In this document: positions 11,756 through 35,293 of the stretch, one piece after another
Layout: each line of letters starts with the position of its first letter
Position numbering within the stretch: the first letter of the stretch is position 1
Assembly (NCBI GenBank): GCA_017453065.1
Contig: JAFTKW010000004.1
Location: 124,001-188,000, forward strand
Source of the DNA: Lachnospiraceae bacterium
Lineage (GTDB): Bacteria > Bacillota > Clostridia > Lachnospirales > Lachnospiraceae
Reading direction: 5' to 3'
Length of the DNA stretch: 64,000 nt
Made by a program: the position numbers and the translations under genes
The notes under the pieces: model-generated
Told to the model about the DNA's origin: nothing
What the model saw: only the letters and a program-made list of their open reading frames with translations
Databases searched by the model: none

Positions 11756-12982
11756 TTATTTTGCATAATAGATAGAAAGATCTGTTAGTTTGTGCGGCGC
11801 ACTTTCTTGATCGATTACAACATCTATCTGACAAGTTGAGACGGATGGGAATCGACAAATATGCTTGTGGCCTACGCTGCAGCCCTTGTAGACGAGAATC
11901 TGTCTTCCGTAAGGATAGGGAGTAATGTAAACGCTAAATTCTGTGATATTTTCTCCTAAGTTTAGGTCTTCTGATAGGACAAGGTGGTTTAATAGGGTTG
12001 GCGATTCCAGGGTGATGGAGTAGGCATTGTCTGTGCGTTTTGCCAAAGACATGTCTGCAAGTTTATTCTCGAAGGTATGACGCAAAGCTTCTCCAAACTC
12101 AAGCAGCGCCTTGCAGTCTGCTTCTGGTAGAAGACCTCTTCTATCTGGCGCGATGTTTATGAGCAGGTTGGCGCCTCTGCCCACAGAATAATAGTAAAGC
12201 CCCATCAATTCATCGGTAGATTTGATGGTTTCTATATCAAGGTCGCTGTAAAACCAGTTGTCTCGTCTGATTCGGCAGTCGCACTCCGCAGGAAGAAATC
12301 TGCTGGTGTTCATTGCGCGTTTGTCTTTGGTTAAAACGGAAAAGTCTAAAGAATCCACTAGGTTAAAGTTTGGCATGGGGGCAAGGCCTGCTTCGTTACC
12401 AATCCATCTTACGTCAGGGTCCCACATATTAAATATAAGAATATTGGGCTGAAGAGAGCGAATGACGGAAACGATACGAGTGGTGTCATACTGGTGGTTT
12501 TCGCTGCCACAGCCATCAAACCACAAATAGTCGATTTGACCATAGTTGCCAAGAAGCTCACTAATCTGGTTGATAAAATAGTCGTCATAGTCGGTGGCTT
12601 TGTCGGAACCGAACTGGGCGGGCGAGTAATATAGGCCAATCTTGAGTCCGTATTTGCGACAGGCATCCGTAAATTCTTTTACCACATCTCCATTTCCGTT
12701 TTTCCAAGGTGTATTCTTGACGGAGTAATCGGTATATGCGGATGGCCAGTTGGCGAAACCGTCGTGGTGCTTGCATACCAAGATGGCATACTTGGCGCCT
12801 GCCTGCTTTACGGTGGAAATCCACTGCTTGCAGTCAAGCTGGTCTGGTTGAAACTTATCGGGGCTCATTTCCTGCATGTCCCAATCTTTGTGCCCTTCAT
12901 AAAAGGTGCGAATGCCGAAGTGGAAAAAGGCACCCAACTCCCAATCTAAAAAATCTAATTGTTCTTTTTTAATCTGAGCCAT
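11756..12982 (-). CDS. alpha-L-fucosidase, glycoside hydrolase family 29, cytoplasmic
   Basis: 408 residues, no signal peptide, so intracellular. GH29 features in order: GAFFHFGIRTFYEG near the start, KHHDGFANW (residues 71-79), and YLWFDG with the expected nucleophile Asp156. A C-terminal beta domain from about 330 follows. It hydrolyses terminal alpha-L-fucosides. It lies 16 bases downstream of the AraC regulator on the same strand, divergent from the importer operon, so it is probably induced with it. Absence of a signal peptide fits a substrate imported as an oligosaccharide. Confidence 0.88.
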   Translation of the reverse strand: MAQIKKEQLDFLDWELGAFFHFGIRTFYEGHKDWDMQEMSPDKFQPDQLDCKQWISTVKQAGAKYAILVCKHHDGFANWPSAYTDYSVKNTPWKNGNGDVVKEFTDACRKYGLKIGLYYSPAQFGSDKATDYDDYFINQISELLGNYGQIDYLWFDGCGSENHQYDTTRIVSVIRSLQPNILIFNMWDPDVRWIGNEAGLAPMPNFNLVDSLDFSVLTKDKRAMNTSRFLPAECDCRIRRDNWFYSDLDIETIKSTDELMGLYYYSVGRGANLLINIAPDRRGLLPEADCKALLEFGEALRHTFENKLADMSLAKRTDNAYSITLESPTLLNHLVLSEDLNLGENITEFSVYITPYPYGRQILVYKGCSVGHKHICRFPSVSTCQIDVVIDQESAPHKLTDLSIYYAK

Positions 12983-12998
12983 CTTTTTTCTCCTTTAA

Positions 12999-13892
12999 TT
13001 ATTTCACAGCCTTCTGCTGTTTTTTGCGGAACTTGGAAGGCGATGTGCCTACAAAGTTGTTAAAGACACGATTGAACTGCGAAAAACTACTGAATCCACT
13101 GGCAAAAGCAATATCTGTGATGGGCTTATTGGTGGATATTAGCATGGTCTGTGCATTTCGGATGCGCGTCAATTGTATGTATTCGGTCAGAGTGAAGTTT
13201 GTGACCTTCTTAAACTGATGAGATAGGTAATAACTGCTGATAAAGAACTGGTCTGCAATAGAGTTTAAGGAAAGATCCTCTGTAAAATGGGTGTGAATGT
13301 AAGCGGTGATGCTATATATCTTGTTGGTAATATTGTCAAAGTCTACCTGGTTTTCGTAGACATTCTTGCTCTGATACAGATAGATCAGACTTAAAAACTC
13401 CATGAATTTGTTGTGAATAGACAGATCAGTCAGTTCGTTGGGCGTCTTAGATAGGTAGTAGATATCATTTAACTTTTCAAAAAGAATATCCCTGTATTTG
13501 CCTTCAAAACGATAAAAGGGAAGCTCCTTGTCGAAGATGCTCAAAATCTTTTTGACGTAGGAATCCAGTGGGGCGGGCATGGATGGGAAGGAAAAGTTGA
13601 TGACCAATCGTTTGCAGGTGGCTCCATCGGGATAGGTGGTTTTGTGAAGCAAAGATGGCCTTACTGCAACAATATCCCCGCGCCTAATGTCGTGCCATGA
13701 GCCGTCAATCAGATGCCCGGCCTGCTGGTCGTCTAAGTAGATAAACATTTCATAGAATTGATGGAAATGCTGGAATTCCATATTTACAGTATGGGAGCGC
13801 TCGTCCCAGTCAAAGTAATAAAAGAAAGGGGCTCCGTAGGGGTTGATGCGGATGTCGTATTTTTGTTCGTAGATCAGATTTCCAATTAACAT
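12999..13892 (-). CDS. AraC-family transcriptional regulator
   Basis: 297 residues from the ATG at 13892. An upstream in-frame Met would add 45 unlikely residues, while AAAGGA lies 12 bases before 13892. An N-terminal cupin-like sensing domain (HFHQFYEMFIYLDD, about 30-45) is followed by a C-terminal AraC double helix-turn-helix (about 205-295; ISSYYLSHQFKK and the typical ITDIAFASGFSSFSQFNRVF). Family members usually activate nearby catabolic operons when a sugar binds. The fucosidase gene is just downstream and the importer operon is divergent; these are its obvious targets. Confidence 0.92.
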   Translation of the reverse strand: MLIGNLIYEQKYDIRINPYGAPFFYYFDWDERSHTVNMEFQHFHQFYEMFIYLDDQQAGHLIDGSWHDIRRGDIVAVRPSLLHKTTYPDGATCKRLVINFSFPSMPAPLDSYVKKILSIFDKELPFYRFEGKYRDILFEKLNDIYYLSKTPNELTDLSIHNKFMEFLSLIYLYQSKNVYENQVDFDNITNKIYSITAYIHTHFTEDLSLNSIADQFFISSYYLSHQFKKVTNFTLTEYIQLTRIRNAQTMLISTNKPITDIAFASGFSSFSQFNRVFNNFVGTSPSKFRKKQQKAVK

Positions 13893-14203
13893 AATAAGCA
13901 CGATTCCTTTCAAGATTGCAGAATTTGTCATACTGTTGAAACAATTTGCAAATTTTGTTTTTTGACGTATTGTCGCTTTGACTTGCGAAAGTGTCAAAAA
14001 AATAACAAAATTGGTAAAAATGCACAAATTCGAAGGGCTAAAAGTGTTAAAACTGTTGTCACGACAAGAAAATTATAAAACAAAAAAGCAAATAATGCAA
14101 TGTCTTTAAGCAAAAAGACAACATATGAGTGGTATTTCGTCTATAAACTTGCTAGTCTATACTCATCAGACGGGGGTGGGCCCCGAAAAGGAGGGTATTT
14201 TTT
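13893..14203. promoter_or_regulatory. divergent control region of araC-GH29 and the importer operon
   Basis: 311 bp without a gene. On the plus side, TATACT (14158-14163) is a fair -10 with a poor -35, typical of an activator-dependent promoter. GGAGG before 14204 is the ribosome site. TTTGAC occurs at 13961-13966 and 13977-13982, and its inverse GTCAAA at 13993-13998. All are spaced 16 bp apart and are candidate AraC-type half-sites. A small GGGG/CCCC hairpin lies just before the ribosome site. Confidence 0.55.
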
Positions 14204-16276
14204 ATGAAAAAACTTACAACTCTCTTATTAGTAGCAGCATTGGCAATCGGCACCTTGACAGGATGCGGCGGATCAGGCGGCGAAACTAATAATGTTGAGA
14301 AACCAGTTCAGAGTTCAGAGGTTGTTACACCATCTTCTAGCGAAGTTGTTGAAGATGTAGTAGCTCCTAAGGAAGCACCTATGTTGACAGCTTTGGTTGA
14401 GGCTGGAACACTTCCTGCATTGGACGAAAGAATGCCAGTTGAAGCAGACCGTTTCGTAGAAACAGTTGATGCAACAGGCGCACCACTTTCAATCGGTACT
14501 TATGGCGGAACAATTAACTTGGCAAACGGCGGCGGTAGCTGGGATTTGTCTAGACCAATCACAGAAAGTATCATCCATTACAACACAGATGGCTCTTATT
14601 ATCCAAACGTAATCAAGAGCTTCGAACACAATGATGATTACACAGAGTGGACATTCCATCTCAGAGAAGGAATGAAATGGTCTGACGGTGATGACTTCAA
14701 CGCAGATGACATCACATTCTGGTTCTATATGTGTCACGTTTCCAACTTCGACACAAAGAAGAGCTGGGCAGCACTTGTAGACTACAAAGAAAAAGTTGTT
14801 CAGGAAGACGGCACTGAAAAAGATGTGATTCATCATCCAACACTTACAAAAGTTGATGATTTGACAGTTAAATTCACATTTACAAAAGCTAAATTGCCAG
14901 CTGACTTCATCGAAAACGGTGACTTCAAATGGTGCTGGGCTCCATCTCATTACTTGAATGATTTGATTCCAGATTCCATTTATGTTGAAAATGAATATTG
15001 GCCAGCAACAGGTCTCAGTGATGAGCAGGTTCTCCTCAATGCAAAAGCAAAGGGCATCGATCAGGCTACAATCAAAGACCTTGGTAAAGCAGTAAGCTAC
15101 TATTTCTGGAATGTATCCGGAGTTCCTACACTTAACCCTTACGTTTTGACTACAAAAGAAGGCAACAACACAAAAGATGCTGAACTTTGTATCTTAGAGC
15201 GTAACCCATATTACTGGAAAGTTGACGCAGAAGGCAATCAACTTCCATACTGTGACGCAATCTACTTCCATAAATATTCCGAGACAGGACAGGATCAGTT
15301 GGCATTCCGTTCTAAAGAATTGGATGTTATCAACGTAGGTATGGGCGATATCGCAACAATCCTTGCAGATATGGGCGAAGATGCTCAGCTTAGAGTAATG
15401 TCTGGTTCTAACTGGGGTTCCTACCAGATTACATTTAACTACACTATCGAAGACAAAAACTATGCAGACTTGTTTGCAAACATTAAATTCCGTGAAGCTA
15501 TGTCAATCGCAGTAGACCGTGAACAGGTTTCTGGCCTTTTGACAGACGGATTCCTTGCTCCAGCACAGTGTGCTCCTGCAAAAGGTAACTTTGGTTACGA
15601 TGAAGAGTGGGAGAAGAAGTGGACAAATTATGATGTAGCAGCAGCTAAGAAATTGTTAGAAGAATGTGGCCTTGTAATGGGCGCAGATGGTTTCTATGAT
15701 TTCGCAGATGGCTCTGATTTACTTATCACATTCTATTCCTATACAGAGTCTCTCAACTCCGAAACATCTTATCCTGTACTTGAACAGTACTTCAAAGCAA
15801 TTGGTATCAATTGTGCAAACAAAGACCTTGCTGTAGAAGCATTCGACCAGGAAATCGACAACAACACATGGTGTGCAGTTTTAGGACCTCACACATCCAT
15901 CGGTGGCCTTTCTCTTAGAGACCGTGTTGCTCCATTCGTTCCTGTTCAGGAAGCAGCTGAATGGTACGGCGAATACGGTGCTTGGTATGGCACAGGCGGA
16001 GCTGAAGGTGTAGAACCTACTGGCGATATGGCTGAGCTGCTTAAGATTTATGAGCAGTGGGCAGCTGAAAAAGATTCTGCTAAGAGAGATGAACTCTCCT
16101 TGAAGATTTATGATATTCACAAAGCAAATCTTTGGTCAATTGCATACTTAGAGGGCGAAGGAACATATACACTCATTAGCTCTAAACTTGGAAACTATCC
16201 TAAGGATTTAGTATCTGCTGACTTATATCAGTATGCTAACATTGCACACTACTGGACAATGTACAAAACTGAATAG
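14204..16276 (+). CDS. extracellular solute-binding lipoprotein, SBP_bac_5 family
   Basis: 690 residues. The signal peptide ends in a lipobox (LTGC, Cys at about residue 21), then a Gly/Ser/Glu-rich tether, then an SBP_bac_5 domain (about 85-640; YEHNDDYTEWTFHLREG-type region near 145). It captures ligand outside the membrane and hands it to the permeases encoded next. The family is called peptide/nickel-binding, but several members (for example Thermotoga opp-type systems) carry oligosaccharides. The glycosidase neighbours favour a glycoside here. The C-terminal half is longer than in typical DppA. Confidence 0.92.
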   Translation: MKKLTTLLLVAALAIGTLTGCGGSGGETNNVEKPVQSSEVVTPSSSEVVEDVVAPKEAPMLTALVEAGTLPALDERMPVEADRFVETVDATGAPLSIGTYGGTINLANGGGSWDLSRPITESIIHYNTDGSYYPNVIKSFEHNDDYTEWTFHLREGMKWSDGDDFNADDITFWFYMCHVSNFDTKKSWAALVDYKEKVVQEDGTEKDVIHHPTLTKVDDLTVKFTFTKAKLPADFIENGDFKWCWAPSHYLNDLIPDSIYVENEYWPATGLSDEQVLLNAKAKGIDQATIKDLGKAVSYYFWNVSGVPTLNPYVLTTKEGNNTKDAELCILERNPYYWKVDAEGNQLPYCDAIYFHKYSETGQDQLAFRSKELDVINVGMGDIATILADMGEDAQLRVMSGSNWGSYQITFNYTIEDKNYADLFANIKFREAMSIAVDREQVSGLLTDGFLAPAQCAPAKGNFGYDEEWEKKWTNYDVAAAKKLLEECGLVMGADGFYDFADGSDLLITFYSYTESLNSETSYPVLEQYFKAIGINCANKDLAVEAFDQEIDNNTWCAVLGPHTSIGGLSLRDRVAPFVPVQEAAEWYGEYGAWYGTGGAEGVEPTGDMAELLKIYEQWAAEKDSAKRDELSLKIYDIHKANLWSIAYLEGEGTYTLISSKLGNYPKDLVSADLYQYANIAHYWTMYKTE

Positions 16277-16304
16277 TCTTTAAAAGAACAAAAACTATTT
16301 TTTT

Positions 16305-16341
16305 CCGGAGGCGGGAACCGGTTTCCGCCTCCGGTTTTTTT
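16305..16341 (+). terminator. intra-operon terminator/attenuator after the binding-protein gene
   Basis: A 13-bp stem (from CCGGAGGCGG, 16305-16317 with 16322-16334, one G-U) with loop CCGG, followed by seven T. It lies between the binding protein and the first permease. It probably lowers permease expression relative to the binding protein. Confidence 0.88.
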
Positions 16342-16359
16342 CAGAAAGGAACTTTTCTA

Positions 16360-17490
16360 ATGGATGATATTATGAACAAATCAGAAAACATGCATGAAAA
16401 TAATCCGAAGAAAACCGTAATAGAAGCAATAAAAGACTTTTTTGCAAGGGATCTGGTACAGTACATCTTGAAACGTATCTTGATGTTTATTCCAACTTTG
16501 TTTTTAATATCAGTCTTGGTTTTCTTCGTAATTCAGCTCCCACCGGGAGACTTTGTTACATCTCATATTGCAAAACTTGCAACAGAAGGTGAAATCGTAG
16601 ACGCTGCAGCAGCCCAGGCGATGAGAGAAGACTATGGCTTAGACTTGCCAATGTGGCAACAGTATGTGAAATGGGTAAAAGATATTATCTGGACCTCATC
16701 AGATTCCACCTACTACAGATTATATGAATCTCATCACAACTGGAAATATTCCTTCGCTTATGGTAGAGATGTATGGGATGTTGTAGATGACCGACTTGGC
16801 TTAACCATTTTGGTTACGGCAATTATTATGATTTTCCAGTATGCAGTATCACTGCCAATTGCAGTATATGCATCCACACATCAGTATTCTGTAGGAGATT
16901 ATGTATCTTCCATCATAGGATTTTTGGGAACGGCGATTCCGAACTTTATCCTTGCCATCATACTGATGTACCTGTCGTATGTATGGACGGGAAATGCCAA
17001 CGTAGGTTTGTTCTCGCAAGATATGTTGGTAAATGGTATTAGTTTAGCGAACTTTGGTGACTTCCTAAAACGTATGATTATTCCAATCATTGTTATTGGT
17101 ACCAGCGGTACCTGCGGAATCATCCGATCTGTACGCGCCCAGATGCTTGATGAAGTATCCAAACAGTATGTTTTGACTGCTAGAGCAAAAGGCGTGTCCG
17201 AGAGAACTATCGTTATGAAGTATTGCTTTAGAGCAGCTATCAACCCTACCGTTTCTGGTTTGGGTGGCGTTCTTTCCAGCTTGTTCTCTGGCTCAACTGT
17301 AACAGCGATGGTTTTGAATATGCAGATTCAGGGACCAGTCCTTTTCGAAGCATTGAAGGTACAAGATATGTACCTTGCAGGTGCAATCGTAATGGTTCAG
17401 GCAGTATTGGTAGTTATCGGTATCTTGTTTGCTGATATTGCTTTGGCATTCTTGGATCCTAGAATCCGTTACTCAGGAGGTGGAAGATAA
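16360..17490 (+). CDS. ABC transporter permease, DppB/OppB type
   Basis: 376 residues. Six membrane helices follow a roughly 35-residue cytoplasmic N-terminus. A large external loop after helix 1 includes PPGDF. The EAA loop that contacts the ATPase is at ARAKGVSERTIVMKYCFRAA (about 278-297). It overlaps the next permease by one base (TAATG). It forms the channel together with the next permease. Confidence 0.93.
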   Translation: MDDIMNKSENMHENNPKKTVIEAIKDFFARDLVQYILKRILMFIPTLFLISVLVFFVIQLPPGDFVTSHIAKLATEGEIVDAAAAQAMREDYGLDLPMWQQYVKWVKDIIWTSSDSTYYRLYESHHNWKYSFAYGRDVWDVVDDRLGLTILVTAIIMIFQYAVSLPIAVYASTHQYSVGDYVSSIIGFLGTAIPNFILAIILMYLSYVWTGNANVGLFSQDMLVNGISLANFGDFLKRMIIPIIVIGTSGTCGIIRSVRAQMLDEVSKQYVLTARAKGVSERTIVMKYCFRAAINPTVSGLGGVLSSLFSGSTVTAMVLNMQIQGPVLFEALKVQDMYLAGAIVMVQAVLVVIGILFADIALAFLDPRIRYSGGGR

Positions 17491-18617
17491 TGGCATTGTT
17501 TAAAAAGAAACAGAAATCTAAAGAAGATTATTATCTTGCATCTCAGTGGACTTTGATGATCAGAAAGCTTAGAAAACATAAGCTGGCGCAGCTCTCCTTG
17601 TTCGTGCTCATGATTTTGTATGTGTGTGCTTTGTTTGCAGATTTTCTTGCGCCATATGGCCTGGAAGAGTTTGATGCTCTTTACAAGAACAGCGCACCTA
17701 CCAAAATCCATTTCGAATATGAAGGAGAGAATGTAGGTCCACATATTTATAAACTTCAGAAATCAATTAACCGCGAAGACTTTTCTGTAACCATTACAGA
17801 AGATACTTCCGAGTATTACAAGATAGAATTTTTTGTAAAAGGCCCAGAATACAAGATTTTGGGACTCATTCCTTGTGACATCCATCTGTTTGGTGTAGGC
17901 GAGGGAAGCAATGGTGGTACAGGTGCTAAACTATTTTTGTTCGGTGCAGATTCCTTAGGACGAGATATTTTCTCCAGAGTATTGCATGGAGCAAGAATTT
18001 CCCTGACTATCCCATTCGCAAGTGCCATCATCAGTTTCTTCCTTGGTATTACCATCGGATCTATTTCCGGCTACTTTGGAGGAACTCTTGATATCATTAT
18101 TCAGCGTATTATCGAGGTGATGGGCGCGGTTCCACAGATTCCTCTTTGGCTTGCTCTTTCAGCGGCAATCCCTCCAGGAATCTCAACCGTTAAGATGTAC
18201 TTCTACATTACCATCATCCTGTCCTTCATCAACTGGACTGGTATGGCTCGTGTAGTTAGAGGTAAGTTCCTGTCACTTAAGAATGAAGATTACGTCATGG
18301 CAGCCAGACTTTCTGGCGTGTCTACCTGGAAGATTATCTGGAAGCACTTGGTTCCAGGCTTCATGAGTTACTTGATTGTTTCCATGACACTGAGTATTCC
18401 AGGCTCTATCGTAGGTGAAACATCCATGTCTTATTTGGGACTTGGTATCAAGTCTCCTGCAACTAGCTGGGGTGTACTTTTACAGGAAGCCAGCTCCGTT
18501 ACAGACGTGGCAAGTAACCCACACAAATTGATTCCAATTATTTTCGTAACTATCACAGTTCTTGCCTATAACTTCCTTGGCGATGGACTTCGTGATGCAG
18601 CAGACCCTTACAAGTAA
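17490..18617 (+). CDS. ABC transporter permease, DppC/OppC type
   Basis: 375 residues. An N-terminal OppC_N segment with the first helix (about 30-50) is followed by a loop of about 100 residues that is longer than usual. Five helices then surround the EAA motif (ARLSGVSTWKIIWKHLVP, about 270-287). The start overlaps the preceding stop by one base. The enlarged external loop may relate to the non-peptide ligand. Confidence 0.93.
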   Translation: MALFKKKQKSKEDYYLASQWTLMIRKLRKHKLAQLSLFVLMILYVCALFADFLAPYGLEEFDALYKNSAPTKIHFEYEGENVGPHIYKLQKSINREDFSVTITEDTSEYYKIEFFVKGPEYKILGLIPCDIHLFGVGEGSNGGTGAKLFLFGADSLGRDIFSRVLHGARISLTIPFASAIISFFLGITIGSISGYFGGTLDIIIQRIIEVMGAVPQIPLWLALSAAIPPGISTVKMYFYITIILSFINWTGMARVVRGKFLSLKNEDYVMAARLSGVSTWKIIWKHLVPGFMSYLIVSMTLSIPGSIVGETSMSYLGLGIKSPATSWGVLLQEASSVTDVASNPHKLIPIIFVTITVLAYNFLGDGLRDAADPYK

Positions 18618-18635
18618 ACACGGGAGGTAAATGAA

Positions 18636-19706
18636 ATGAATAACGATACAATTCTAGAAGTGAAAGACCTCCATGTGGACATTCATACATCAGAGGGACT
18701 TTTGACAGCAGTTCGAGGTGTAAACTTCGATATTAAAAGAGGTGAAACCTTAGGATTGGTAGGTGAGTCCGGTTGTGGTAAGTCTCTTACCTGCAAAGCT
18801 ATCCTAGGTATTAACGAGAAAAAATGTGTATCCAGCGGTGAAATCGTATTTGACTCTGAAGGATTAGGCGAAGTTGAACTGATTGGTCTTGCAAATCAGA
18901 AAAAGGATACCAATATTCGCTCTATCCGCGGAAAAGAAATCTCCATGATTTTCCAGGAGCCAATGGTTGCTTTTTCACCTATGTATACTATTGGCAATCA
19001 GATTAATGAAGCAACAATGCTTCACATTACCAAAGACAAAAAGAAAGCAAAAGAGATTTCCATGGAGGTAATGCGTAAGGTTGGTATTGCCAATGTGGAG
19101 AAGAGATACAATCAGTATCCGCACGAATTCTCAGGTGGTATGCTACAGCGTGCATTGATTGCAATGGCTCTTGTATGTAATCCTAAGCTTTTGATTGCAG
19201 ATGAGCCAACAACGGCTCTTGATGTTACTATTCAGGCTCAGGTATTGGAGCTGATGAAGGATCTTCAGAAGGACTTTGGAACTTCCATCCTGTTCATTAC
19301 CCACGACCTTGGTGTAGTAGCAAGAATGTGTGACCGTGTGGCAGTTATGTACCTTGGCAAAATTGTGGAAAGTGCAGATTCAGAAGAGATTTATGCCAAT
19401 CCACAGCACCCATATACAAGAGGCCTGATTGGTTCTGTTCACAAGATTGGTTCCAAGAAAGAGGAGAGACTGTTCTCCATCGAAGGAACAGTGCCTCTGG
19501 CGATGAATCTTCCAAGGGCTTGTGGATTCTACGATCGCTGTGATGTTCGAATTGAGGGCCTTTGCAACAAGGCAGAGCCTGAGTTGGTAGAGGTGGCTCC
19601 TGGCCACAAGATTGCCTGCTTCAACTGCCCACATGAGGCATGTAAAGAGCACAGAGCAAAGGTAGAAGCAATGTTAAGAGAAGAGGAGGCTGGCAAGAAT
19701 GAATAA
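18636..19706 (+). CDS. ABC transporter ATP-binding protein, OppD/DppD type
   Basis: 356 residues. Walker A GESGCGKS (about 46-53), signature FSGGM (about 166), Walker B LLIADEPTTALD (about 187-198), H-loop in FITHDLG. The C-terminal oligopeptide_HPY extension contains the Cys cluster (CGFYDRC and later CNKAEP, CFNC) that in related ATPases holds a metal or Fe-S site. It overlaps the next ATPase gene by 8 bases. Confidence 0.95.
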   Translation: MNNDTILEVKDLHVDIHTSEGLLTAVRGVNFDIKRGETLGLVGESGCGKSLTCKAILGINEKKCVSSGEIVFDSEGLGEVELIGLANQKKDTNIRSIRGKEISMIFQEPMVAFSPMYTIGNQINEATMLHITKDKKKAKEISMEVMRKVGIANVEKRYNQYPHEFSGGMLQRALIAMALVCNPKLLIADEPTTALDVTIQAQVLELMKDLQKDFGTSILFITHDLGVVARMCDRVAVMYLGKIVESADSEEIYANPQHPYTRGLIGSVHKIGSKKEERLFSIEGTVPLAMNLPRACGFYDRCDVRIEGLCNKAEPELVEVAPGHKIACFNCPHEACKEHRAKVEAMLREEEAGKNE

Positions 19707-22343: not shown

Positions 22344-22383
22344 AGGATTTATGGGGATATAAGGGAAAGGACAGGTGCACAGC

Positions 22384-27186: not shown

Positions 27187-27225
27187 ATTAGATTGCTGTA
27201 AGAGCGACATCAAGGAGAAGGAATT

Positions 27226-28380
27226 ATGGGAAGAGAGTTTATTATGCCTGGCAAAATCATCAGTGGAAGTGGAGCCTTGGAACAGTCCGAGAGCCAGCTT
27301 GCTAAATTTGGAGCAAAAGCACTGATTGTCACTGATGAAGTGATGGTGAAGCTGGGAAATTTAAACCGCGTAACAGAAGTGCTGGACAAGGCGAAGGTTG
27401 CTTATGTAGTTTACGACGGAATAGGCGGGGAGCCTACGGATGGAATGATAGACAAGGGTCTTGCGATTTATCAGCAGGAGGGCTGTGATTTCTTCATTGC
27501 ACTTGGAGGAGGAAGCCCTATCGACTCCATGAAGGCGATTGCAGCACTTTGTGCCAATGGCGGCAAAATGAGCGACTACATGGGCAAGGAGATTGCGGGG
27601 GCAATTCCACCAATGGTGGCGATTCCTACTACTGCTGGAACAGGCTCAGAAGCAACAAAATTTACGATTATTACCGATACAGAAAAAGATGTGAAGATGC
27701 TACTTAAGGGCGATGCTTTGATGCCAAATCTGGCAATCATTGATCCGCAGTTTACAATGACAGCACCACCATCCATTACTGCAGCAACAGGCTTGGATGC
27801 TTTGACACATGCAATTGAAGCCTACACCTCAGTCAAGGCACAGCCTATGACAGATGTGTTTGCTCTTTCGGCAGTAAAAAGAATCTTCGCATATCTTCCT
27901 ACAGCCTATGCGCAAGGCGGGGATGTAAAGGCAAGAGAAGAAATGTCCTTGGCAGCTTTAGAAGCAGGAGTGGCCTTTAACAATGCTTCAGTGACCATCG
28001 TTCATGGAATGAGTAGACCAATAGGAGCTTTGTTCCATGTGCCACACGGCATATCCAACGCCATGCTTTTGAAGGAATGTCTGACCTTTGCACTAGATGG
28101 TGCCTACGAACGCTTTGAGGATTTGGCTTATGCCATTGGAGTGGCAGATGCGACAAAGAGTGCGCAGGACAATGCAAAAGCCTTTTTGAGAGAGGTAGAA
28201 GGTATTTGTGACAAATTGCAGATTCCTACTCTTGAAAAATATGGAATTGATAGAGAAACGTTCTTTGCCCGCATGGACAAAATGGCAGACGATGCACTGA
28301 TTAGTGGAAGTCCAGCCAATACTCGTAAACCAGTTTCGAAAGAAGATATCCTGGCTATTTACGAAAAACTTTGGAACTAA
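27226..28380 (+). CDS. iron-containing (type III) alcohol dehydrogenase
   Basis: 384 residues. N-terminal Rossmann part with GGGSPIDSMKA (NAD(P) binding, about 93-103), then a helical domain with metal ligands in the pattern D...HAIEAY (about 195-200) and H near HGMSR and HVPHG (about 260 and 272-276). It reduces an aldehyde or ketone or oxidises an alcohol; substrate unknown. Placement directly before iolC suggests it handles an aldehyde made by the pathway, for instance malonate semialdehyde reduced to 3-hydroxypropionate. This is inference. Confidence 0.88.
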   Translation: MGREFIMPGKIISGSGALEQSESQLAKFGAKALIVTDEVMVKLGNLNRVTEVLDKAKVAYVVYDGIGGEPTDGMIDKGLAIYQQEGCDFFIALGGGSPIDSMKAIAALCANGGKMSDYMGKEIAGAIPPMVAIPTTAGTGSEATKFTIITDTEKDVKMLLKGDALMPNLAIIDPQFTMTAPPSITAATGLDALTHAIEAYTSVKAQPMTDVFALSAVKRIFAYLPTAYAQGGDVKAREEMSLAALEAGVAFNNASVTIVHGMSRPIGALFHVPHGISNAMLLKECLTFALDGAYERFEDLAYAIGVADATKSAQDNAKAFLREVEGICDKLQIPTLEKYGIDRETFFARMDKMADDALISGSPANTRKPVSKEDILAIYEKLWN

Positions 28381-28395
28381 GCAAAGGAGAAAGAT

Positions 28396-29421
28396 ATGGG
28401 ATATATAGAATTTGACCAGAGCAGACCATTTGACATAGTACTTCTAGGAAGAGTGGCAGTGGACTTCAATCCTGTGGATTACTTCCAACCATTGGAAGAA
28501 TGCACCACCTTCAAAAAATATGTAGGCGGATCACCTGCCAATATAGCAGTAGGTACAGCGCGCCATGGACTTAAGACGGGTTTTTTTGCAAGAGTGTCAG
28601 ACGATCAGCTTGGAGATTTTGTAACTCATTTTTTTGAAAAAGAAGGAATTGATACATCCAGGATTCGCAGATGCGAACACGGAGAGAAGATAGGTTTGAC
28701 CTTTACAGAAATTCTGTCTCGCGATGAATCCAGCATATTGATGTATCGTAACTGCATTGCGGATTTACAGTTAAATCCAGCAGATATAGACGAAGAATAT
28801 ATCAAAGGGACAAAAGCGCTTTTGATTTCGGGAACATCCTTGGCTGCCAGCCCATCCAGAGAGGCAGCCCTCAAGGCAGTTATGCTGGCAAAGCGTTTTG
28901 GAACCAGAATTATTTTCGACATAGACTACCGCGCTTACAACTGGCAGAGTCAGGATGAAATCTCTATCTATTACTCTATGGTGGCCAAAGAGGCGGATAT
29001 CATCATGGGCTCTAGAGAAGAGTTTGACCTGATGGAAAGACTGATAGAGCCGGGCAGAGATGATCTTCAGAGCGCCAAGGCATGGCATGCTCACAATGCC
29101 AAGATAGTGATTATCAAGCATGGAAAGAAGGGCTCTACAGCCTATACCTGCGATGGCAAGCAATATACTGTAAGACCATTCCCAGTGGAAGCACTGAAAT
29201 CCTTTGGCGGTGGAGATGGCTATGGTGCGGGATTTTTGTATGGCCTTTTCCATGGCTGGGATATGTACGACTGCCTGGAATTTGGCTGTGCACAAGCGTC
29301 CATGATGGTGGCAGCCCATTCCTGCTCAGAAGATTTGCCAAGGGCAGATGAAGTACATGCCTTTATCAAAGCCAGCAAGGAAAAGTATGGCGACAACGTA
29401 TGCTGTGACCGTAAAGGATAG
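28396..29421 (+). CDS. iolC: 5-dehydro-2-deoxygluconokinase
   Basis: 341 residues, PfkB/ribokinase family. It phosphorylates 5-dehydro-2-deoxy-D-gluconate (DKG) to DKG-6-phosphate in myo-inositol catabolism. The N-terminal GRVAVDFNP and [10 protein letters not shown] segments and the C-terminal [10 protein letters not shown] anion-hole motif with the catalytic Asp are present. Assignment to IolC rather than another PfkB kinase rests largely on the following iolD, iolE, iolG and iolB. Confidence 0.9.
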
Positions 29422-29477
29422 CAGACGATAGGCCGAAGGGCCCCAAAATAAGGAAAAGAATAAAAGAGGGTATTGTT

Positions 29478-31400
29478 ATGGGAAACGTTAGAATGACAGT
29501 TGGTCAGGCGATTGTAAAATTCTTAGACAACCAGTATGTGGAATTGGATGGAAAAGAGACCAAGTTTGTAGAAGGCATTTTTACAATTTTTGGACACGGC
29601 ATCGTGGTTGGTTTGGGACAAGCGCTGGATGAAAATCCAGGTGGACTTAAGGTTTATCAGGGGCGCAATGAGCAGGGAATGGCGCATGTGGCAACTGGTT
29701 ATGCGAGACAGAACAATAGACGCAAAATCATTGCATGTGCATCCTCTATTGGACCTGGTGCAGCGAACATGGTTACGGCTGCTGCAACAGCAACTGTGAA
29801 CCGCATTCCGCTTTTGTTATTCCCAGGAGATACTTTTGCAGTAAGGCAGCCAGACCCAGTGTTGCAGCAGATAGAGCAGGAGACTTCTCCATCTGTAACT
29901 ACCAACGATGCATTTCGCCCAGTATGTAAATTCTGGGATAGAATAACCAGACCAGAGCAGTTGATGTCGACCTTGACTCAGGCTATGAGAGTGCTGACTG
30001 ACCCTGCCAAGACAGGCGCAGTTTGCGTAGCATTGTCTCAGGATGTGGAAGGGGAATCTTACGACTTCCCGGATTACTTTTTTGAAAAACGTGTGCACAG
30101 GATTCGTCGAATGATTCCGGTACAGGAAGATTTGAATGAACTGGTGGAACTGATTTGCGCCAGCAAAAAGCCAATGATTATCTGTGGCGGTGGAGTGCGC
30201 TACTCTGAAGCAGGTGCTACATTGGAGGCTTTTGCAGAGAAATTCAAGATTCCATTTGCAGAGACACAGGCTGGAAAGAGTGCATGCCGTTCTTCTCACC
30301 CATATAACTTGGGAGGCGTTGGCGTGACAGGCAACTTGTCTGCCAATACCATTGCCAGAGAGGCAGATCTTATTATTTCCGTAGGCAGCAGACTTTCAGA
30401 CTTTACAACCGGTTCTAAGGAACTGTACGGCAGGACCAAACTGGTAGCCATCAATGTTTCCATGTTTGATGCAGGAAAGATGGATGCACATGTGGTACTT
30501 GGGGATGCAAAGGTTACCTTGGAACTTGCTGGTAAGGCCCTGGAAGAAAAAGGTTATGTCAGTGGATATGGCAAAGAAATTGAAGTGGCAAAACGCAGCT
30601 GGGATGAAGAATACGGCCGCTTGGCGATTTATACATATGGCAAGAATTTCCGTCCAATTATCAAAGCTAGAAACGAATCCAGTATTCCTGAGTTTGTAGA
30701 ACTGACGGGTGGAGAAGTAGTGCAGACTTCTGCTATCGCACTTATTCGTGAGACCATCGACAAGGATGCGATTATTGTAGGTGCTTCCGGAAGTCTTCCA
30801 GGAGATTTGCAGAGAATGTGGACTACAGACTGTAAGGATTCCTACCAAATGGAATATGGATATTCTTGTATGGGATATGAGATTGCAGCTTCCTTGGGTG
30901 CTAAGTTGGCATTCCCAGAGCAGGAGGTGTATGCGATGTGTGGAGATGGAGCATTCCTGATGATGCACAGCGAATTTATTACCTCTTTGCAGGAAAAACG
31001 CAAAATCAATGTTCTTTTGTTTGATAACTGTGGATTTGGCTGCATCAACAACCTGCAGATGAGCAATGGCATAGGTAATTTGGCTACAGAGTTTCGCTAT
31101 CGCGATGACGAAGGTGGCTTGAATGGCTCTATGATGCCAATTGATTATGCAATGGTTGCAGCTGGCTACGGTGCAAAAACATACACTGTCAAGACTTTGG
31201 AAGACCTGAAAAACGCATTGCAGGATGCAAAGAAGCAGACAGTATCCACGCTGATTGATATCAAGGTATTACCAAAGACGATGACAGATGGATATCATTC
31301 ATGGTGGAATGTGGGCTTGGCAAGCACAACTGGTGTGAAAGCACAGCAGGATGCTTATGACAAGCTGATCGAAAACAGAAAAAATGCAAGACAATACTAA
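29478..31400 (+). CDS. iolD: 3D-(3,5/4)-trihydroxycyclohexane-1,2-dione hydrolase
   Basis: 640 residues, ThDP-dependent. It opens the ring of the diketone made by IolE to give 5-deoxyglucuronate. The family order is present: N-terminal Pyr domain ([13 protein letters not shown] near 36; the catalytic-type Glu lies in the [14 protein letters not shown] stretch), central domain, and a C-terminal PP domain with GDGAF ... [10 protein letters not shown]-like cofactor motif (about 490-525). The length is typical. GAGGG-type ribosome site before the ATG. Confidence 0.95.
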
Positions 31401-31417
31401 GGCGGAGGATAGAAGGT

Positions 31418-32317
31418 ATGTTTTCAGGAAAAGAAGTGAAATTAGGAATTGCTCCAATCGCATGGACAAATGATGATTTGCCAGAACTAGGTGGAGAGAA
31501 TACATTTGAACAGTGTGTCAGTGAAATGGCACTGGCAGGCTTTACAGGTTCTGAAGTTGGTAATAAATATCCAAAAGATCCAGCGGTGTTAAAACCAGCG
31601 CTCAATCTTCGCGGTATTGAAATCTGTAATGCATGGTTTTCTACCTTCCTAATCAGTAAGCCATACGAAGAGACAGAGGTTGAATTTGAAAAGCATGTTG
31701 CCTTTTTGGCAGCCATGGGAGCAAAGGTGGTTGGTGTATCTGAACAGAGCTATAGTACACAGGGCATTCAGGACCAGCCAGTATTTGAAGGAAAGTATGA
31801 AATGAACGACGAAGAGTGGGCACTTCTGTGTGAAGGCTTAAATCGCCTTGGAAAACTTTCTTTGGAAAAATATGGCGTAGCATTAACCTTCCATCACCAT
31901 ATGGGTACTGTAGTGCAGAGCGCAGCCGAAGTGGAGCGCATGATGAAGGGAACAGACCCTGCATATGTAAGTCTTCTTTTTGATAGCGGTCATTTTGCAT
32001 ACTGCGGAGAGGACCCAGTCCAGATGGTGGCGCTTTATGCAGATCGCATCAAGCATGTGCATTTAAAGGACATTCGTCCTGAAGTGGTTCGTCGAGTAAA
32101 GGCAGAGGGCCTGAGCTTTTTGGAAGGAGTTCGTCAGGGAGCATTTACTATCCCTGGTGATGGATGTGTAGAGTTTGCGTCTATCTTTAAGGTGTTAGCA
32201 GAAAGTGGCTACGAAGGATATATGGTAGTGGAAGCAGAGCAGGACCCTGCAAAGGCTAATCCACTGGAATATGCAATTCGCGCCAGAAAGTTTATTAGAG
32301 AGCAGACAGGACTATAG
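31418..32317 (+). CDS. iolE: myo-inosose-2 dehydratase
   Basis: 299 residues, xylose-isomerase-like TIM barrel. It dehydrates 2-keto-myo-inositol to the trihydroxycyclohexanedione. The opening [16 protein letters not shown] is characteristic of IolE. Metal ligands lie in the TFHHHMGT (about 151-158) and [10 protein letters not shown] (about 212) segments. It starts 17 bases after iolD with AGGATAGAAGG upstream. Confidence 0.95.
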
Positions 32318-32330
32318 GAGGGTAAAAGAT

Positions 32331-33344
32331 ATGGTAACAGTAGGCATTATTGGAGCAGGAAGAATAGGTAAAGTACATACAGAGAGTATCTGCAATTATG
32401 TTCGCAATGCGAAAATTAAGATGGTAGCAGATCCATTTATGAGCGAGGAAACCGAGAAGTGGCTTAAGGGAATGGGCGTTGCGAATACATCAAAGGATTA
32501 CCATGAAATCTTAAATGATCCTGAGATTGATGCAGTATTGATCTGTTCATCCACCAACACACATTCCAATATTTCTCTGGAAGCAATCGCTGCTGGCAAG
32601 CATGTGTTCTGTGAAAAGCCAATCGACCATGACTTGGCGAAGATTAAAGAAGTAGTAAAGGCGTTGGAAGGCAGTAGCATCAAATATCAGGTTGGCTTTA
32701 ACCGTAGATTTGACCACAATTTTGCTGCAGTGAAAAAAGCAGTGGTAGACGGAAAAATTGGAGAAACACATATTATCAAGGTGACATCAAGAGACCCTGA
32801 GCCACCAAGTGCTGAGTATGCAGCTGTTTCAGGAGGAATGTTCCTGGATATGACAATCCATGATTTTGATATGGTTCGTTTCCTCGCAGGCTGTGATGCG
32901 GAAGAAATTTATGTACAGTCCGCAGTTTTGGTAGATCCAGCTATCGGCGAAGCAGGGGACGTAGATACAGCAGTAATCACTATCAAGATGGAAAATGGAG
33001 CTATCGCAGTGATTGACAACTCAAGACGTGCTGCATATGGATATGACCAGAGAGCAGAAGTGTTTGGTTCTAAGGGTATGGCAGCAACTTCCAACGACAC
33101 AGCGTCCAGCGTAGTTCTCTCTACACAAGATGGTGTTACAGGCGAGAAACCTCTCTATTTCTTCCTAGAGAGATATATGCAGTCCTTTGCAACAGAAGTA
33201 GGCTGCTTTATCGATGCTATAGAAAATGACACAGATACTCCACTTGGCGTAGTGGATGGACTGAAGCCAGTTTTGATGGGCATTGCGGCAAAGAAATCTG
33301 TAGAGGAACACAGACCTGTAAAACTTTCTGAAATTCAGTATTAA
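32331..33344 (+). CDS. iolG: inositol 2-dehydrogenase (Gfo/Idh/MocA family)
   Basis: 337 residues from the ATG at 32331, which has an ideal AGGAGGG site. A longer in-frame start overlapping iolE is rejected. It oxidises myo-inositol at C2 with NAD, the first pathway step. N-terminal GIIGAGRIGKVH (NAD fold), CEKPIDHD (the Lys of the EKP motif), and DMTIHDFDMVRF with catalytic Asp/His. Related enzymes use scyllo-inositol or other polyols, but the operon makes myo-inositol the best substrate. Confidence 0.92.
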   Translation: MVTVGIIGAGRIGKVHTESICNYVRNAKIKMVADPFMSEETEKWLKGMGVANTSKDYHEILNDPEIDAVLICSSTNTHSNISLEAIAAGKHVFCEKPIDHDLAKIKEVVKALEGSSIKYQVGFNRRFDHNFAAVKKAVVDGKIGETHIIKVTSRDPEPPSAEYAAVSGGMFLDMTIHDFDMVRFLAGCDAEEIYVQSAVLVDPAIGEAGDVDTAVITIKMENGAIAVIDNSRRAAYGYDQRAEVFGSKGMAATSNDTASSVVLSTQDGVTGEKPLYFFLERYMQSFATEVGCFIDAIENDTDTPLGVVDGLKPVLMGIAAKKSVEEHRPVKLSEIQY

Positions 33345-33364
33345 TTTCAAAATAGACTAAAAAT

Positions 33365-33390
33365 GTGGCACGCCCTGTTGGACGTGCCAC
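33365..33390 (+). other. intercistronic hairpin between iolG and iolB
   Basis: GTGGCACG (33365-33372) and CGTGCCAC (33383-33390) are exact complements with a 10-base loop, 18 bases before the iolB start. There is no T tract. It may protect or punctuate the message. Confidence 0.75.
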
Positions 33391-33407
33391 TTACGAAGGA
33401 GAAAAAT

Positions 33408-34187
33408 ATGAGCCAGGAATTCAGTTATCCAAAGTTTGATGAACATGGCGTAAAAATAATTTCCACAGCGGGTGATGCTGTGAATGATATGATGATGAAC
33501 ATTACTGTTTATCGCATGAAGGAAGGAGAGGTAAGAACCTTCTTATACCCTACAGATGAGATGGCGGTGCTACTTGTTTTGGGCGAAGTAAGCTTTGCGT
33601 GGAATGGTGAAAACCGAAGCGGAAAGAGAAGTAGCTTTATTGAAGAGGGGCCACATTGTCTGCATGTTAGCAAAGGCGTGGAAGTGACGGTGAAGGCACA
33701 GACAGATAGCGAGGTGCTGGTACAGACCACAGAAAATAGCAGAGACTTTGCTCCTGTTTTTTACAGACCAGAAGATTGTAGAGATGATATTTTCGGGAAA
33801 GACGTATTTGACAACAAGATGAAACGAACCGTTCGTACCGTTTTTGATTACAGCAATGCGCCTTATTCCAATATGGTAAATGGTGAGGTCATCAACCATC
33901 AGGGTGGTTGGTCTAGCTATACACCGCATCATCATCCGCAGCCAGAGGTTTACTATTATCGTTATGAGAGACCAGAAGGCTTTGGAGCATGCTTTATTGA
34001 CGATATGGCATACAAGATTATGGACGGAAGCTGCGCAGCGATTCCTTGTGGCAAAACGCATCCACAGGTAACGGCTCCAGCATTTCCTATGTACTACTGC
34101 TGGATGATTCGTCATTTGGAAGGCAATCCATGGACGGACCGTGTGGTAGATCCAAGATATACGTGGATTGATGGAAGCATGAAGTAA
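33408..34187 (+). CDS. iolB: 5-deoxy-glucuronate isomerase
   Basis: 259 residues from the ATG at 33408 (AAGGAG 8 bases before); an upstream in-frame ATG at 33363 lies inside the hairpin region and is unlikely. Bicupin fold. The metal site is in TPHHHPQPEVYYY (about 178-190), which is diagnostic. It converts 5-deoxyglucuronate to 5-dehydro-2-deoxygluconate, the IolC substrate. With iolG, iolE, iolD and iolC the route to the kinase product is complete here. Confidence 0.95.
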   Translation: MSQEFSYPKFDEHGVKIISTAGDAVNDMMMNITVYRMKEGEVRTFLYPTDEMAVLLVLGEVSFAWNGENRSGKRSSFIEEGPHCLHVSKGVEVTVKAQTDSEVLVQTTENSRDFAPVFYRPEDCRDDIFGKDVFDNKMKRTVRTVFDYSNAPYSNMVNGEVINHQGGWSSYTPHHHPQPEVYYYRYERPEGFGACFIDDMAYKIMDGSCAAIPCGKTHPQVTAPAFPMYYCWMIRHLEGNPWTDRVVDPRYTWIDGSMK

Positions 34188-34207
34188 AAAACAGAGGAGT
34201 ACCTTTG

Positions 34208-35161
34208 ATGAAAAAGTACGCGTTTGGTGTAGATGTAGGTGGGACCACTTGCAAGATTGGCTTTTTTACAGTGGATGGAGAACTGCTTGAAAAGTGGGAA
34301 ATTCCTACAGATACAAAGAACAATGGCGCAAAGATTCTTTTAAACATTGCAAACGAGATTGACCGTAAGCTGGAAAAAGAGAGCATAGATAGAGACGAGT
34401 TGTTGGGCATTGGCATAGGCGTTCCTGGACCGGTGACGGGTAATAGCGTTGTAAGTGTTTGTGAGAATCTTGGCTGGGAAAATGTAAATGTGGCAGCTGA
34501 CTTGACGGCGTTGACAGGTCTGGTGGTAAAGGCAGAAAACGATGCCAATCTGGCCGCACTAGGTGAGATGTGGAAGGGAAATGCAGCAGGCAGTAAGAAT
34601 ATGATGCTGGTCACTCTTGGAACTGGAGTTGGAGCTGGGGTGATTGTAGATGGCCAGGTAATAGCGGGAGCAAGAGGCGCAGCAGGCGAAATAGGCCATA
34701 TGGTGGTCTGTTTTGAGGAACAGGAGATGTGTGCTTGTGGCAAATATGGATGCCTGGAACAGTATGGTTCTGCAACAGGTATTGTACGCCTTGCCAAGAG
34801 AAGACTCCAAAAGCTAAAAAATACAGATGGAGCACATGACACCAACTTGTCGAAGAAGGCTGTGCTAACTGCGAAAGCAGTATTTGACGCTGCAAAGGCT
34901 GGAGATATAGTGGCTCTTGAGACAGTAGATGAAGCTGGCAGGATTTTGGGCGCGGCACTTGCCAATGTGGCATGTGTGACCAATCCGGAAGTGATTGTGA
35001 TAGGAGGCGGTGTTTCCAAGGCTGGCAGTATTTTGACAGATGTAATTCAAAAGAATTTTACCATTCATGCTTTTACAGATTGCCGTGATGCCAGATTTGT
35101 GCTTGCATCCCTGGGAAATGATGCTGGTATATATGGTGGAGTAAAACTTTTACAGCAATAA
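34208..35161 (+). CDS. ROK-family sugar kinase (glucokinase-like)
   Basis: 317 residues from the ATG at 34208 (AGGAG 8 bases upstream; a TTG three bases earlier is less likely). ASKHA fold: DVGGTTCKIG (phosphate 1), ENDANLAALGE (catalytic Asp region, about 110-120), GTGVGAG (phosphate 2), and the ROK zinc motif CACGKYGCLE (about 178-187). It phosphorylates a hexose such as glucose, or perhaps mannose. As the last gene of the operon it probably salvages a hexose released by the glycosidases. Confidence 0.9.
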   Translation: MKKYAFGVDVGGTTCKIGFFTVDGELLEKWEIPTDTKNNGAKILLNIANEIDRKLEKESIDRDELLGIGIGVPGPVTGNSVVSVCENLGWENVNVAADLTALTGLVVKAENDANLAALGEMWKGNAAGSKNMMLVTLGTGVGAGVIVDGQVIAGARGAAGEIGHMVVCFEEQEMCACGKYGCLEQYGSATGIVRLAKRRLQKLKNTDGAHDTNLSKKAVLTAKAVFDAAKAGDIVALETVDEAGRILGAALANVACVTNPEVIVIGGGVSKAGSILTDVIQKNFTIHAFTDCRDARFVLASLGNDAGIYGGVKLLQQ

Positions 35162-35180
35162 TAAGTAAGGAAAAGCGCTC

Positions 35181-35261
35181 ATGAAGCAGATTCAAGGGTG
35201 CTATGCCGGCGGGCCTGTGGTAGTGTGCAGGAACCAACACAAGAAAAAGAGCGGAATTTAG
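35181..35261 (+). other. possible 26-codon ORF or structured RNA before the terminator
   Basis: An ATG at 35181 opens 26 codons (beginning MKQIQGCYAGG) ending at TAG 35259-35261, with AAGGA nine bases upstream. The same stretch also has CGCTC (35176-35180) complementary to GAGCG (35250-35254), so it may be an RNA structure and not a gene. It matches no RNA family I know. Confidence 0.25.
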
Positions 35262-35293
35262 ACCGAGCTTTGCAGTAGCAAGGCTCGGTTTTT
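35262..35293 (+). terminator. terminator ending the importer/inositol operon
   Basis: A 12-bp stem (ACCGAGC...GCTCGGT, one G-U) with loop AGTA, followed by TTTT. It closes the long plus-strand gene train. Confidence 0.9.

What the first reader, a model, noticed from the sequence alone, without database searches (positions are those of the whole stretch)
11756..35293. Candidate cytoplasmic pathway for uronosyl-inositol glycans: importer, fucosidase, mannosidase, lyase-like protein, GH105 and inositol catabolism in one locus
Seen: from 14204 to the terminator at 35262 every gene is on the plus strand with no gap above about 100 bp. The order is SBP, two permeases, two ATPases, HAD-GH105, GH38, toroid protein, Fe-ADH, iolC, iolD, iolE, iolG, iolB and ROK kinase. 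AraC and GH29 are divergent. No glycoside-releasing enzyme has a signal peptide. Known: GH105/GH88 enzymes remove unsaturated uronic acid left by a lyase; the iol set degrades myo-inositol; Opp-type importers can carry oligosaccharides. Inference: the imported ligand contains inositol joined to a uronic acid that carries mannose and/or fucose. A lyase would cut at the uronate, GH105 would free inositol from the unsaturated uronyl-inositol, and iol genes would consume it. Plant glycosyl-inositol-phosphoryl-ceramide head groups (hexose-GlcA-inositol) fit this. I know of no described bacterial system for it.
Basis: partly seen in the sequence, partly recalled or inferred. Interest (0 to 1): 0.88.

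Follow-up and report, generated by a model that had tools for sequence, protein, structure and literature searches.

The report
Gut-bacterial pathway for plant sphingolipid head-groups
A gene cluster found again and again in gut bacteria looks like an intracellular line for importing and dismantling an inositol sugar that plants carry on their main membrane sphingolipids, for which I found no described bacterial route.

Summary
In detail: one plus-strand run (14204-35161, largest gap 89 bp, terminator at ~35260-35293) encodes an Opp-type importer, HAD-GH105, GH38, a toroid protein, Fe-ADH, iolC/D/E/G, an IolB-like protein and a ROK kinase. The toroid protein gives a confident model (pLDDT 91.5) whose first 47 fold matches are all polysaccharide lyases. 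It keeps an invariant Asn-His...Tyr motif but is too distant in sequence to place in a known family. The neighbourhood is not chance. In 72 related loci GH105, GH38, HAD, importer and iol genes recur in at least six gene orders. In 246 genomes of the order, iolD above cut-off is in 8 of 10 toroid-positive and 17 of 236 other genomes, and in 7 the two genes lie within 8 kb. An unexpected clue points to the substrate: 18 loci carry an unannotated protein whose fold matches are NLPs, proteins that bind plant GIPC sphingolipids. It occurs in 7 of 10 toroid-positive and 1 of 236 other genomes, but not in the window's own. Best reading: cytoplasmic catabolism of GIPC heads such as alpha-Man-(1,4)-alpha-GlcA-(1,2)-myo-inositol. 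GH29 is not part of it. No activity is shown, and many toroid-positive genomes lack iolD.

The parts
12999..14027 (-). AraC-type regulator, divergent from the operon
   Evidence: Pfam HTH_18 and HTH_AraC; AraC relatives in the same loci as GH105/toroid
11756..12982 (-). GH29-like alpha-L-fucosidase, next to but probably not part of the core system
   Evidence: Pfam Alpha_L_fucos 154 bits; 0 of 72 related loci have a relative at the threshold used
14204..16276 (+). Lipoprotein solute-binding protein, SBP_bac_5
   Evidence: Pfam; PDB hits 5ipw (putative oligopeptide SBP, E 1.9e-51), then SPH1118 7ver E 2.2e-39
16360..17490 (+). Opp-type permease B
17490..18617 (+). Opp-type permease C
18636..19706 (+). 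Importer ATPase D
19699..20700 (+). Importer ATPase F
20690..22285 (+). HAD domain (atypical motif I D11-S-G-D-T, K90, GNNxxxD) fused to GH105 domain; D323 aligns with YteR D143
22375..25464 (+). GH38 alpha-mannosidase with four GH38 Pfam domains, closest solved Ams1
25498..27186 (+). Toroid protein, predicted lyase of an unplaced family; invariant N168, H169, Y217; helical toroid (about 1-320) plus beta-rich domain
27226..28380 (+). Iron-containing alcohol dehydrogenase, travels with iol genes in relatives
28396..29421 (+). IolC, 5-dehydro-2-deoxygluconokinase
   Evidence: TIGR04382 397 bits, cut-off 300
29478..31400 (+). IolD
   Evidence: TIGR04377 902 bits, cut-off 715
31418..32317 (+). IolE, inosose dehydratase
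   Evidence: TIGR04379 406 bits, cut-off 290
32271..33344 (+). IolG, inositol 2-dehydrogenase (start probably near 32331)
   Evidence: TIGR04380 464 bits, cut-off 355
33363..34187 (+). IolB-like, KduI/IolB family
   Evidence: Pfam KduI 176 bits; TIGR04378 91 bits, below cut-off 205; the only hit of that Pfam family in the genome assembly
34205..35161 (+). ROK-family hexose kinase
   Evidence: TIGR00744 294 bits, cut-off 260
35260..35293 (+). Intrinsic terminator
   Evidence: sequence and fold; not reported by the simple scan

Best explanation
[quoted passage not shown] Proposed steps, all inferred: (1) The head group is freed outside the cell by a phospholipase that is not in this run. (2) The SBP5/Opp importer takes it in. 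(3) GH38 (in other loci GH2 or alpha-galactosidase) trims outer sugars. (4) The toroid protein cuts the bond at O-4 of GlcA by beta-elimination, giving the hexose and 4,5-unsaturated GlcA-inositol. (5) GH105 hydrates and opens the unsaturated uronyl residue, freeing myo-inositol. (6) IolG, E, D, B-like and C consume the inositol. The ROK kinase would phosphorylate the hexose, and the Fe-ADH probably serves the end of the iol pathway. Shown here: gene content, folds, kept motifs, and non-random association. Not shown: any substrate or activity.
For: Toroid: AF2 pLDDT 91.5. Foldseek ranks 1-47 in the PDB (50 shown) are all polysaccharide lyases, best 1rw9 E 4.9e-9. Profile comparison with Hepar_II_III_N proteins aligns N168-H169 and D206-G..E.S...Y217 with their N-H and DG..E.S..Y motifs: probability 38% with the 12 of 21 proteins first read, 26% (P 7e-4) with all 21, against 0.1-2.6% for five unrelated profiles. 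N168, H169 and Y217 are invariant in 45 of 45. GH105: D323 aligns with YteR D143 (D143 as the catalytic residue is recalled). iol: C, D, E and G above equivalog cut-offs. Association: of 39 loci with at least 8 kb on both sides, GH105 in 30, GH38 in 25, HAD in 22, Opp in 20, three or more iol genes in 17, in at least six orders. iolD above cut-off in 8 of 10 toroid-positive and 17 of 236 toroid-negative genomes, p 1.4e-7, or 1.1e-6 without the window's own genome; within 8 kb of the toroid gene in 7. Substrate pointer: cluster c14 (18 of 72 loci) models at pLDDT 92.4. Its first 14 PDB matches are all NLPs, E 3e-5 to 4e-3, next unrelated 0.046. Its profile aligns with NLP 3st1 over the GHRHDWE region, E 0.008. 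c14 is in 7 of 10 toroid-positive and 1 of 236 other genomes, p 1e-10, in those 7 within 15 kb on the same contig. NLPs bind GIPC (PMC6743777, passages). Head-group chemistry fits: PMC12498067, abstract and introduction.
Against: No activity is known for any gene. If the lyase releases mannose from GlcA, GH38 is not needed for a two-sugar head, and if GH38 acts first the lyase has no leaving group; the mannosidase needs longer or other glycans. Of 24 toroid-positive genomes without iol genes seen nearby, 16 have no iolD above cut-off (many are MAGs). 9 of 39 full-flank loci have no GH105 and 22 fewer than three iol genes at my thresholds. The window's own genome has no c14. NLP-like TM-scores are low (about 0.36), and c14 lacks the GHRHDWE heptapeptide. 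The toroid-lyase profile match is weak (26-38%). GH105 scores above the cut-off of an NCBI model named beta-galactosidase BglB (436 against 420), whose basis I could not trace. No gene for the uronate product was identified in the operon. The association tests do not correct for relatedness of genomes.
Confidence: 0.55

Rival explanations
1. The enzymes degrade a glucuronomannan or xanthan-type oligosaccharide: a PL8-like lyase cuts at GlcA, GH105 removes the unsaturated GlcA, and GH38 removes the alpha-mannose beneath it. The iol genes are a passenger.
For: Toroid matches include xanthan lyase. The GH105 plus GH38 plus lyase set is what a hexose-(1,4)-GlcA-(1,2)-alpha-Man side chain would need (recalled chemistry), and it explains GH38 better. 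22 of 39 full-flank loci have fewer than three iol genes nearby.
Against: iolD co-occurs with the toroid and, though rearranged around it, lies within 8 kb in 7 of 10 toroid-positive genomes. The NLP-fold gene tracks the toroid. I identified no secreted endo-acting enzyme in the run.
Confidence: 0.2
2. The ligand is an inositol glycan or inositol phosphate glycan other than a GIPC (for example manno-inositols, GPI or microbial inositol lipids), with the toroid and GH105 acting on a uronate found there.
For: iol association and GH38. HAD or, in 10 other loci, a PHP-type protein (33 HAD, 10 c17-PHP, 0 both, of 72) could mean that a phosphate has to be removed.
Against: A 4-substituted GlcA on inositol is documented for plant GIPCs. 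The HAD motif lacks the usual second Asp, and another PHP does co-occur with HAD in G177.
Confidence: 0.12
3. Operon of convenience: an ordinary Opp importer and mixed glycosidases co-transcribed with a general inositol operon, without a shared substrate.
For: The annotated enzymes belong to broad families.
Against: 53 of 72 loci hold GH105 or GH38 with the toroid, in rearranged orders, and phylogenetic profiles give p 1e-7 and 1e-10. The three other genomes of the same genus in the sample lack both the toroid and iolD above cut-off.
Confidence: 0.1
4. The toroid protein is not a lyase but a hydrolase or epimerase on an alpha/alpha toroid.
For: Toroid folds are shared with GH88/105 and epimerases (recalled); rank 48 in the fold search is cellobiose 2-epimerase. 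The profile match to lyases is weak.
Against: 47 of the first 47 fold matches are lyases; the Asn-His...Tyr motif is invariant; the GH105 partner would need an unsaturated uronate.
Confidence: 0.15

Closest known systems
PL8 and related alpha/alpha-toroid polysaccharide lyases (chondroitin AC lyase 1rw9, xanthan lyase 2e24, BtPL33HA 8r6z, exoHep 6ljl)
   Same: Fold; Asn-His and Tyr motif positions align with Hepar_II_III_N proteins
   Different: 7-11% identity in ranks 1-47; 562 residues; only a short weak Pfam PL8_N match in 14 of 45 members; no signal peptide by reading; operonic with inositol genes
GH105/GH88 unsaturated uronyl hydrolases (YteR 1nc5; 3qwt, 3pmm)
   Same: Pfam GH88 302 bits; Asp aligned with YteR D143 kept
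   Different: Fused to an atypical HAD domain; aglycone predicted to be inositol
iol myo-inositol catabolic operon
   Same: IolC, D, E, G above equivalog cut-offs, IolB-like present
   Different: No usual inositol transporter and no iolJ or iolA seen in the run; coupled to an oligosaccharide-type importer and glycan-cleaving enzymes
Pectin-binding SPH1118 of Sphingomonas sp. A1
   Same: SBP_bac_5-type protein with an Opp-like importer that serves a uronate polysaccharide (PMC7055323 passages)
   Different: Only family-level similarity; the top PDB hit is a putative oligopeptide SBP (5ipw)
NLP (Nep1-like, NPP1) proteins, for the c14 protein of related loci
   Same: Fold, and the region around the heptapeptide, SxHGK and TH positions align
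   Different: No signal peptide by reading, heptapeptide region is DIQHLYDLEH, inside a catabolic operon; no significant Pfam NPP1 match

Membership tests
Polysaccharide lyase PL8 | Fold of catalytic domains | tested here: met
   Foldseek best hits PL8, TMq 0.57
Polysaccharide lyase PL8 | Sequence membership (Pfam Lyase_8_N) | tested here: inconclusive
   21.5 bits against cut-off 24 in the protein scan, 25.7 in the six-frame genome search, covering only about positions 12-100 of 323 of the profile; 14 of 45 members match at E 0.01
Polysaccharide lyase PL8 | Catalytic Asn, His, Tyr, Arg | tested here: inconclusive
   Profile alignment to two PL8 proteins covered residues 47-84 only
PL12/15/17/21-type lyases (Hepar_II_III_N) | N-H ... 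DG..E.S..Y motif | tested here: inconclusive
   Aligned in register both times, but probability only 38% (12 of 21 proteins) and 26% (21 of 21); controls 0.1-2.6%; no Pfam match
GH105 | Family sequence and catalytic Asp | tested here: met
   Pfam Glyco_hydro_88 302 bits; D323 aligned to YteR D143
GH105 | Activity on unsaturated uronyl glycosides | not testable with these tools
   needs assay
myo-inositol iol pathway | IolC, IolD, IolE, IolG equivalogs | tested here: met
myo-inositol iol pathway | IolB equivalog | tested here: not met
   91 bits against 205; Pfam KduI family is met
myo-inositol iol pathway | IolJ aldolase elsewhere in the genome | not tested
   an aldolase-like gene was seen next to iolC only in related loci L021 and L023, named by reading
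NLP/NPP1 (c14 of related loci, not in the window) | Fold | tested here: met
   ranks 1-14 all NLPs, low TM about 0.36
NLP/NPP1 (c14 of related loci, not in the window) | GHRHDWE heptapeptide and Pfam significance | tested here: not met
   heptapeptide region is DIQHLYDLEH; best NPP1 E 0.068, 4 of 17 members
HAD phosphatase | DxDxT, S/T, K, acidic motif IV (recalled motifs) | tested here: not met
   D-S/C-G-D-T, ADG or VDG, K, GNNxxxD in 32 aligned copies

The most novel reading that the evidence does not exclude
Gut Lachnospiraceae, Oscillospiraceae and treponemes carry a dedicated intracellular system for the head group of GIPCs, built on a new lyase family that makes unsaturated GlcA-inositol and on a cytosolic NLP-fold protein, repurposed from or ancestral to plant-sphingolipid-binding proteins, acting as an enzyme or sensor of that head group.
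Probability: 0.42. Interest if true: 0.9.

Novelty: new variant of a known kind. Interest (0 to 1): 0.8.

Why it matters
[quoted passage not shown] A named gene set, recognisable by the toroid lyase and the NLP-fold gene, would make microbial digestion of this dietary lipid's head group directly testable. It would also add a lyase family acting on an inositol glycan and give NLP-fold proteins a catabolic setting.

Tried and rejected
Fucose as part of the ligand: GH29 has no relative in 72 loci at the threshold used, so it was dropped. HAD as an ordinary phosphatase: motif I lacks the second Asp and motif II the Ser/Thr. The idea that HAD and PHP replace each other (33 HAD, 10 c17-PHP, 0 both of 72) is only a lead: on the toroid tree each label needs three changes, and a different PHP sits beside HAD in G177. 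PL8 profile alignment gave only residues 47-84. KduI elsewhere in the genome assembly: none (assembly 84.7% complete). A known bacterial GIPC head-group pathway in print: none seen in the listings (open-licence papers only; up to 20 listed each). The basis of the NCBI name 'beta-galactosidase BglB': not found. Gene presence used bit thresholds that I set by eye. The 72 loci are 61 and 11 fetched (the 11 relative places of the 12); several come from one genome (for example L019/L021, L018/L023, L033/L081, L069/L082), the two sources may overlap, and 33 have less than 8 kb on one side. The 24 genomes are 17 from the 22 full-flank loci without three iol genes and 7 from cut loci. In one search my script read one strand only and so used 12 of 21 lyase proteins; one search repeats it with 21 of 21 and adds five control profiles.
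Full report
What is there. All its genes are on the plus strand, with gaps of at most 89 bp and several overlaps. It ends with a strong hairpin and T-run at about 35260-35293. IolC, IolD, IolE and IolG exceed NCBI equivalog cut-offs; the fifth iol gene is IolB-like but below its cut-off. The window lies in contig C39 of an unnamed 2.73-Mb, 45-contig assembly, 84.7% complete and 5.06% contaminated. The nearest relatives of its toroid protein are in Lachnospiraceae.

The toroid protein. Pfam gives only a weak, partial PL8_N match (marginally above cut-off in the six-frame search). The PDB sequence profile search gives nothing firm (best E 0.24, chondroitinase AC). From an alignment of 45 sequences (window plus 44 homologs) AlphaFold2 gives a confident model (pLDDT 91.5, pTM 0.88): a helical part followed by a beta-rich part. 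Against the PDB, ranks 1-47 of the 50 shown (60 with E up to 0.001) are polysaccharide lyases, best E 4.9e-9. With the 12 that my first script read, the invariant N168-H169 aligned with their Asn-His and D206-G-E-Y-A-E-K-S-A-G-N-Y217 with their DG..E.S..Y motif (P 3.3e-4, probability 38%). With all 21 the register is the same at 26% (P 7e-4), while GH105, GH38, PHP, HAD and c14 profiles give 0.1-2.6%. That these residues are catalytic in those lyases is recalled, not tested. I conclude that it is very probably a lyase that Pfam does not cover; its substrate cannot be read from the fold.

GH105, GH38 and importer. The GH105 domain matches solved GH105 proteins strongly, and D323 falls on YteR D143. 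GH38 is closest to Ams1. The SBP's best PDB match is a putative oligopeptide SBP; the next is SPH1118, the pectin-binding protein of Sphingomonas sp. A1 (PMC7055323, passages). The HAD domain, fused here and separate in several relatives, keeps the nucleophile but not the usual phosphatase motif.

Is the neighbourhood selected? One scan of genome contigs gave 61 loci, and a sample of 246 genomes of the order gave 10 positive genomes with 12 places. I examined 72 loci. Of the 39 with at least 8 kb on both sides, 30 have GH105, 25 GH38, 22 HAD, 20 the Opp importer, 12 Fe-ADH, 17 three or more iol genes, and none GH29. The iol genes come in at least six orders and on either side of the toroid gene, so the linkage has been kept or remade. 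In the 246-genome sample iolD above cut-off is in 8 of 10 toroid-positive and 17 of 236 toroid-negative genomes (p 1.4e-7, and 1.1e-6 if the window's own genome is left out). In 7 of the 8 it lies within 8 kb of the toroid gene (coordinates). The three other genomes of the same genus in the sample have neither. Against this, of 24 toroid-positive genomes chosen because iol was not seen nearby, only 8 have iolD above cut-off. Relatedness of genomes is not corrected for in these tests.

The unexpected clue. A conserved, unannotated protein of about 230 residues (cluster c14) is in 18 of 72 loci (20 by profile), directly downstream of the toroid gene in 12 of the 18. One member had no Pfam match at E 0.05. 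From 17 members, the profile's best PDB sequence hit is an NLP (E 0.008), with NPP1 the Pfam family most members touch (4 of 17, best E 0.068). Its model (pLDDT 92.4) matches NLPs in ranks 1-14, including NLPPya with glucosamine and mannosamine; the next hit is unrelated at E 0.046. TM-scores are low, about 0.36. The alignment covers the GHRHDWE region and the later S-x-H-G-K and T-H positions. In the 246 genomes c14 is in 8: 7 of 10 toroid-positive, in those 7 within 15 kb of a toroid gene on the same contig, and 1 of 236 others. In that one (G177) it lies beside the same kind of importer, a HAD and a PHP protein. NLPs bind GIPCs (PMC6743777, passages). The window's own genome has no c14.

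Why GIPC. The published head is Man (or other Hex, HexN, HexNAc) on O-4 of GlcA, which is alpha-1,2-linked to myo-inositol (PMC12498067, abstract and introduction). A 4-substituted uronate is what an eliminating lyase needs, and GH105 would then free inositol. Accompanying genes vary in relatives: GH2 in six loci, an alpha-galactosidase-like gene near c14 in G005, and a glucosamine-6-phosphate deaminase-like gene in two loci (cluster c61, named by reading). That fits heads with different outer sugars. GIPC heads can be freed with phosphate by a phospholipase C (PMC11496612, abstract) or without it by phospholipase D, so a phosphatase step may or may not be needed.

Weak points. GH38 is hard to place if the lyase itself releases mannose. 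The uronate product needs further enzymes that I did not identify in the run. Some relatives lack GH105 or iol genes. Everything about substrates is inference.

Noticed in passing
L024:11665-12333 and 17 other related loci (cluster c14): Unannotated protein with an NLP-like fold, invariant D/H/E residues and no signal peptide by reading, tied to the toroid gene.
   Followed up: yes
L022:10784-12433 and 9 other loci (cluster c17): Protein with PHP-type metal motifs by reading but no Pfam match; among the 72 loci it is seen only where the HAD domain is not.
   Followed up: partly
window 20690-21220: HAD domain with D-S-G-D-T motif I and GNNxxxD motif IV, the same pattern in 32 aligned copies (Cys for Ser in two); function unclear.
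   Followed up: partly
L126 (G093), toroid gene in L018: A toroid locus in a genome that also has an iol-linked one; GH38, HAD, a CUT1-type sugar importer, AraC, GH105 and c14 lie upstream, with about 10 kb of other DNA before the toroid gene.
   Followed up: partly
window 35969-39818: Cytidylyltransferase, NeuB-family and GT52/polysialyltransferase-like genes downstream: looks like a sialic-acid-type surface glycan cluster.
   Followed up: no
window 44935-48813: 1292-residue protein with GH53 and Big_4 domains, a candidate surface galactanase.
   Followed up: no
window 11717-11755: 18-pair hairpin between a class II tRNA-synthetase gene and GH29, listed as terminator-like on both strands.
   Followed up: no
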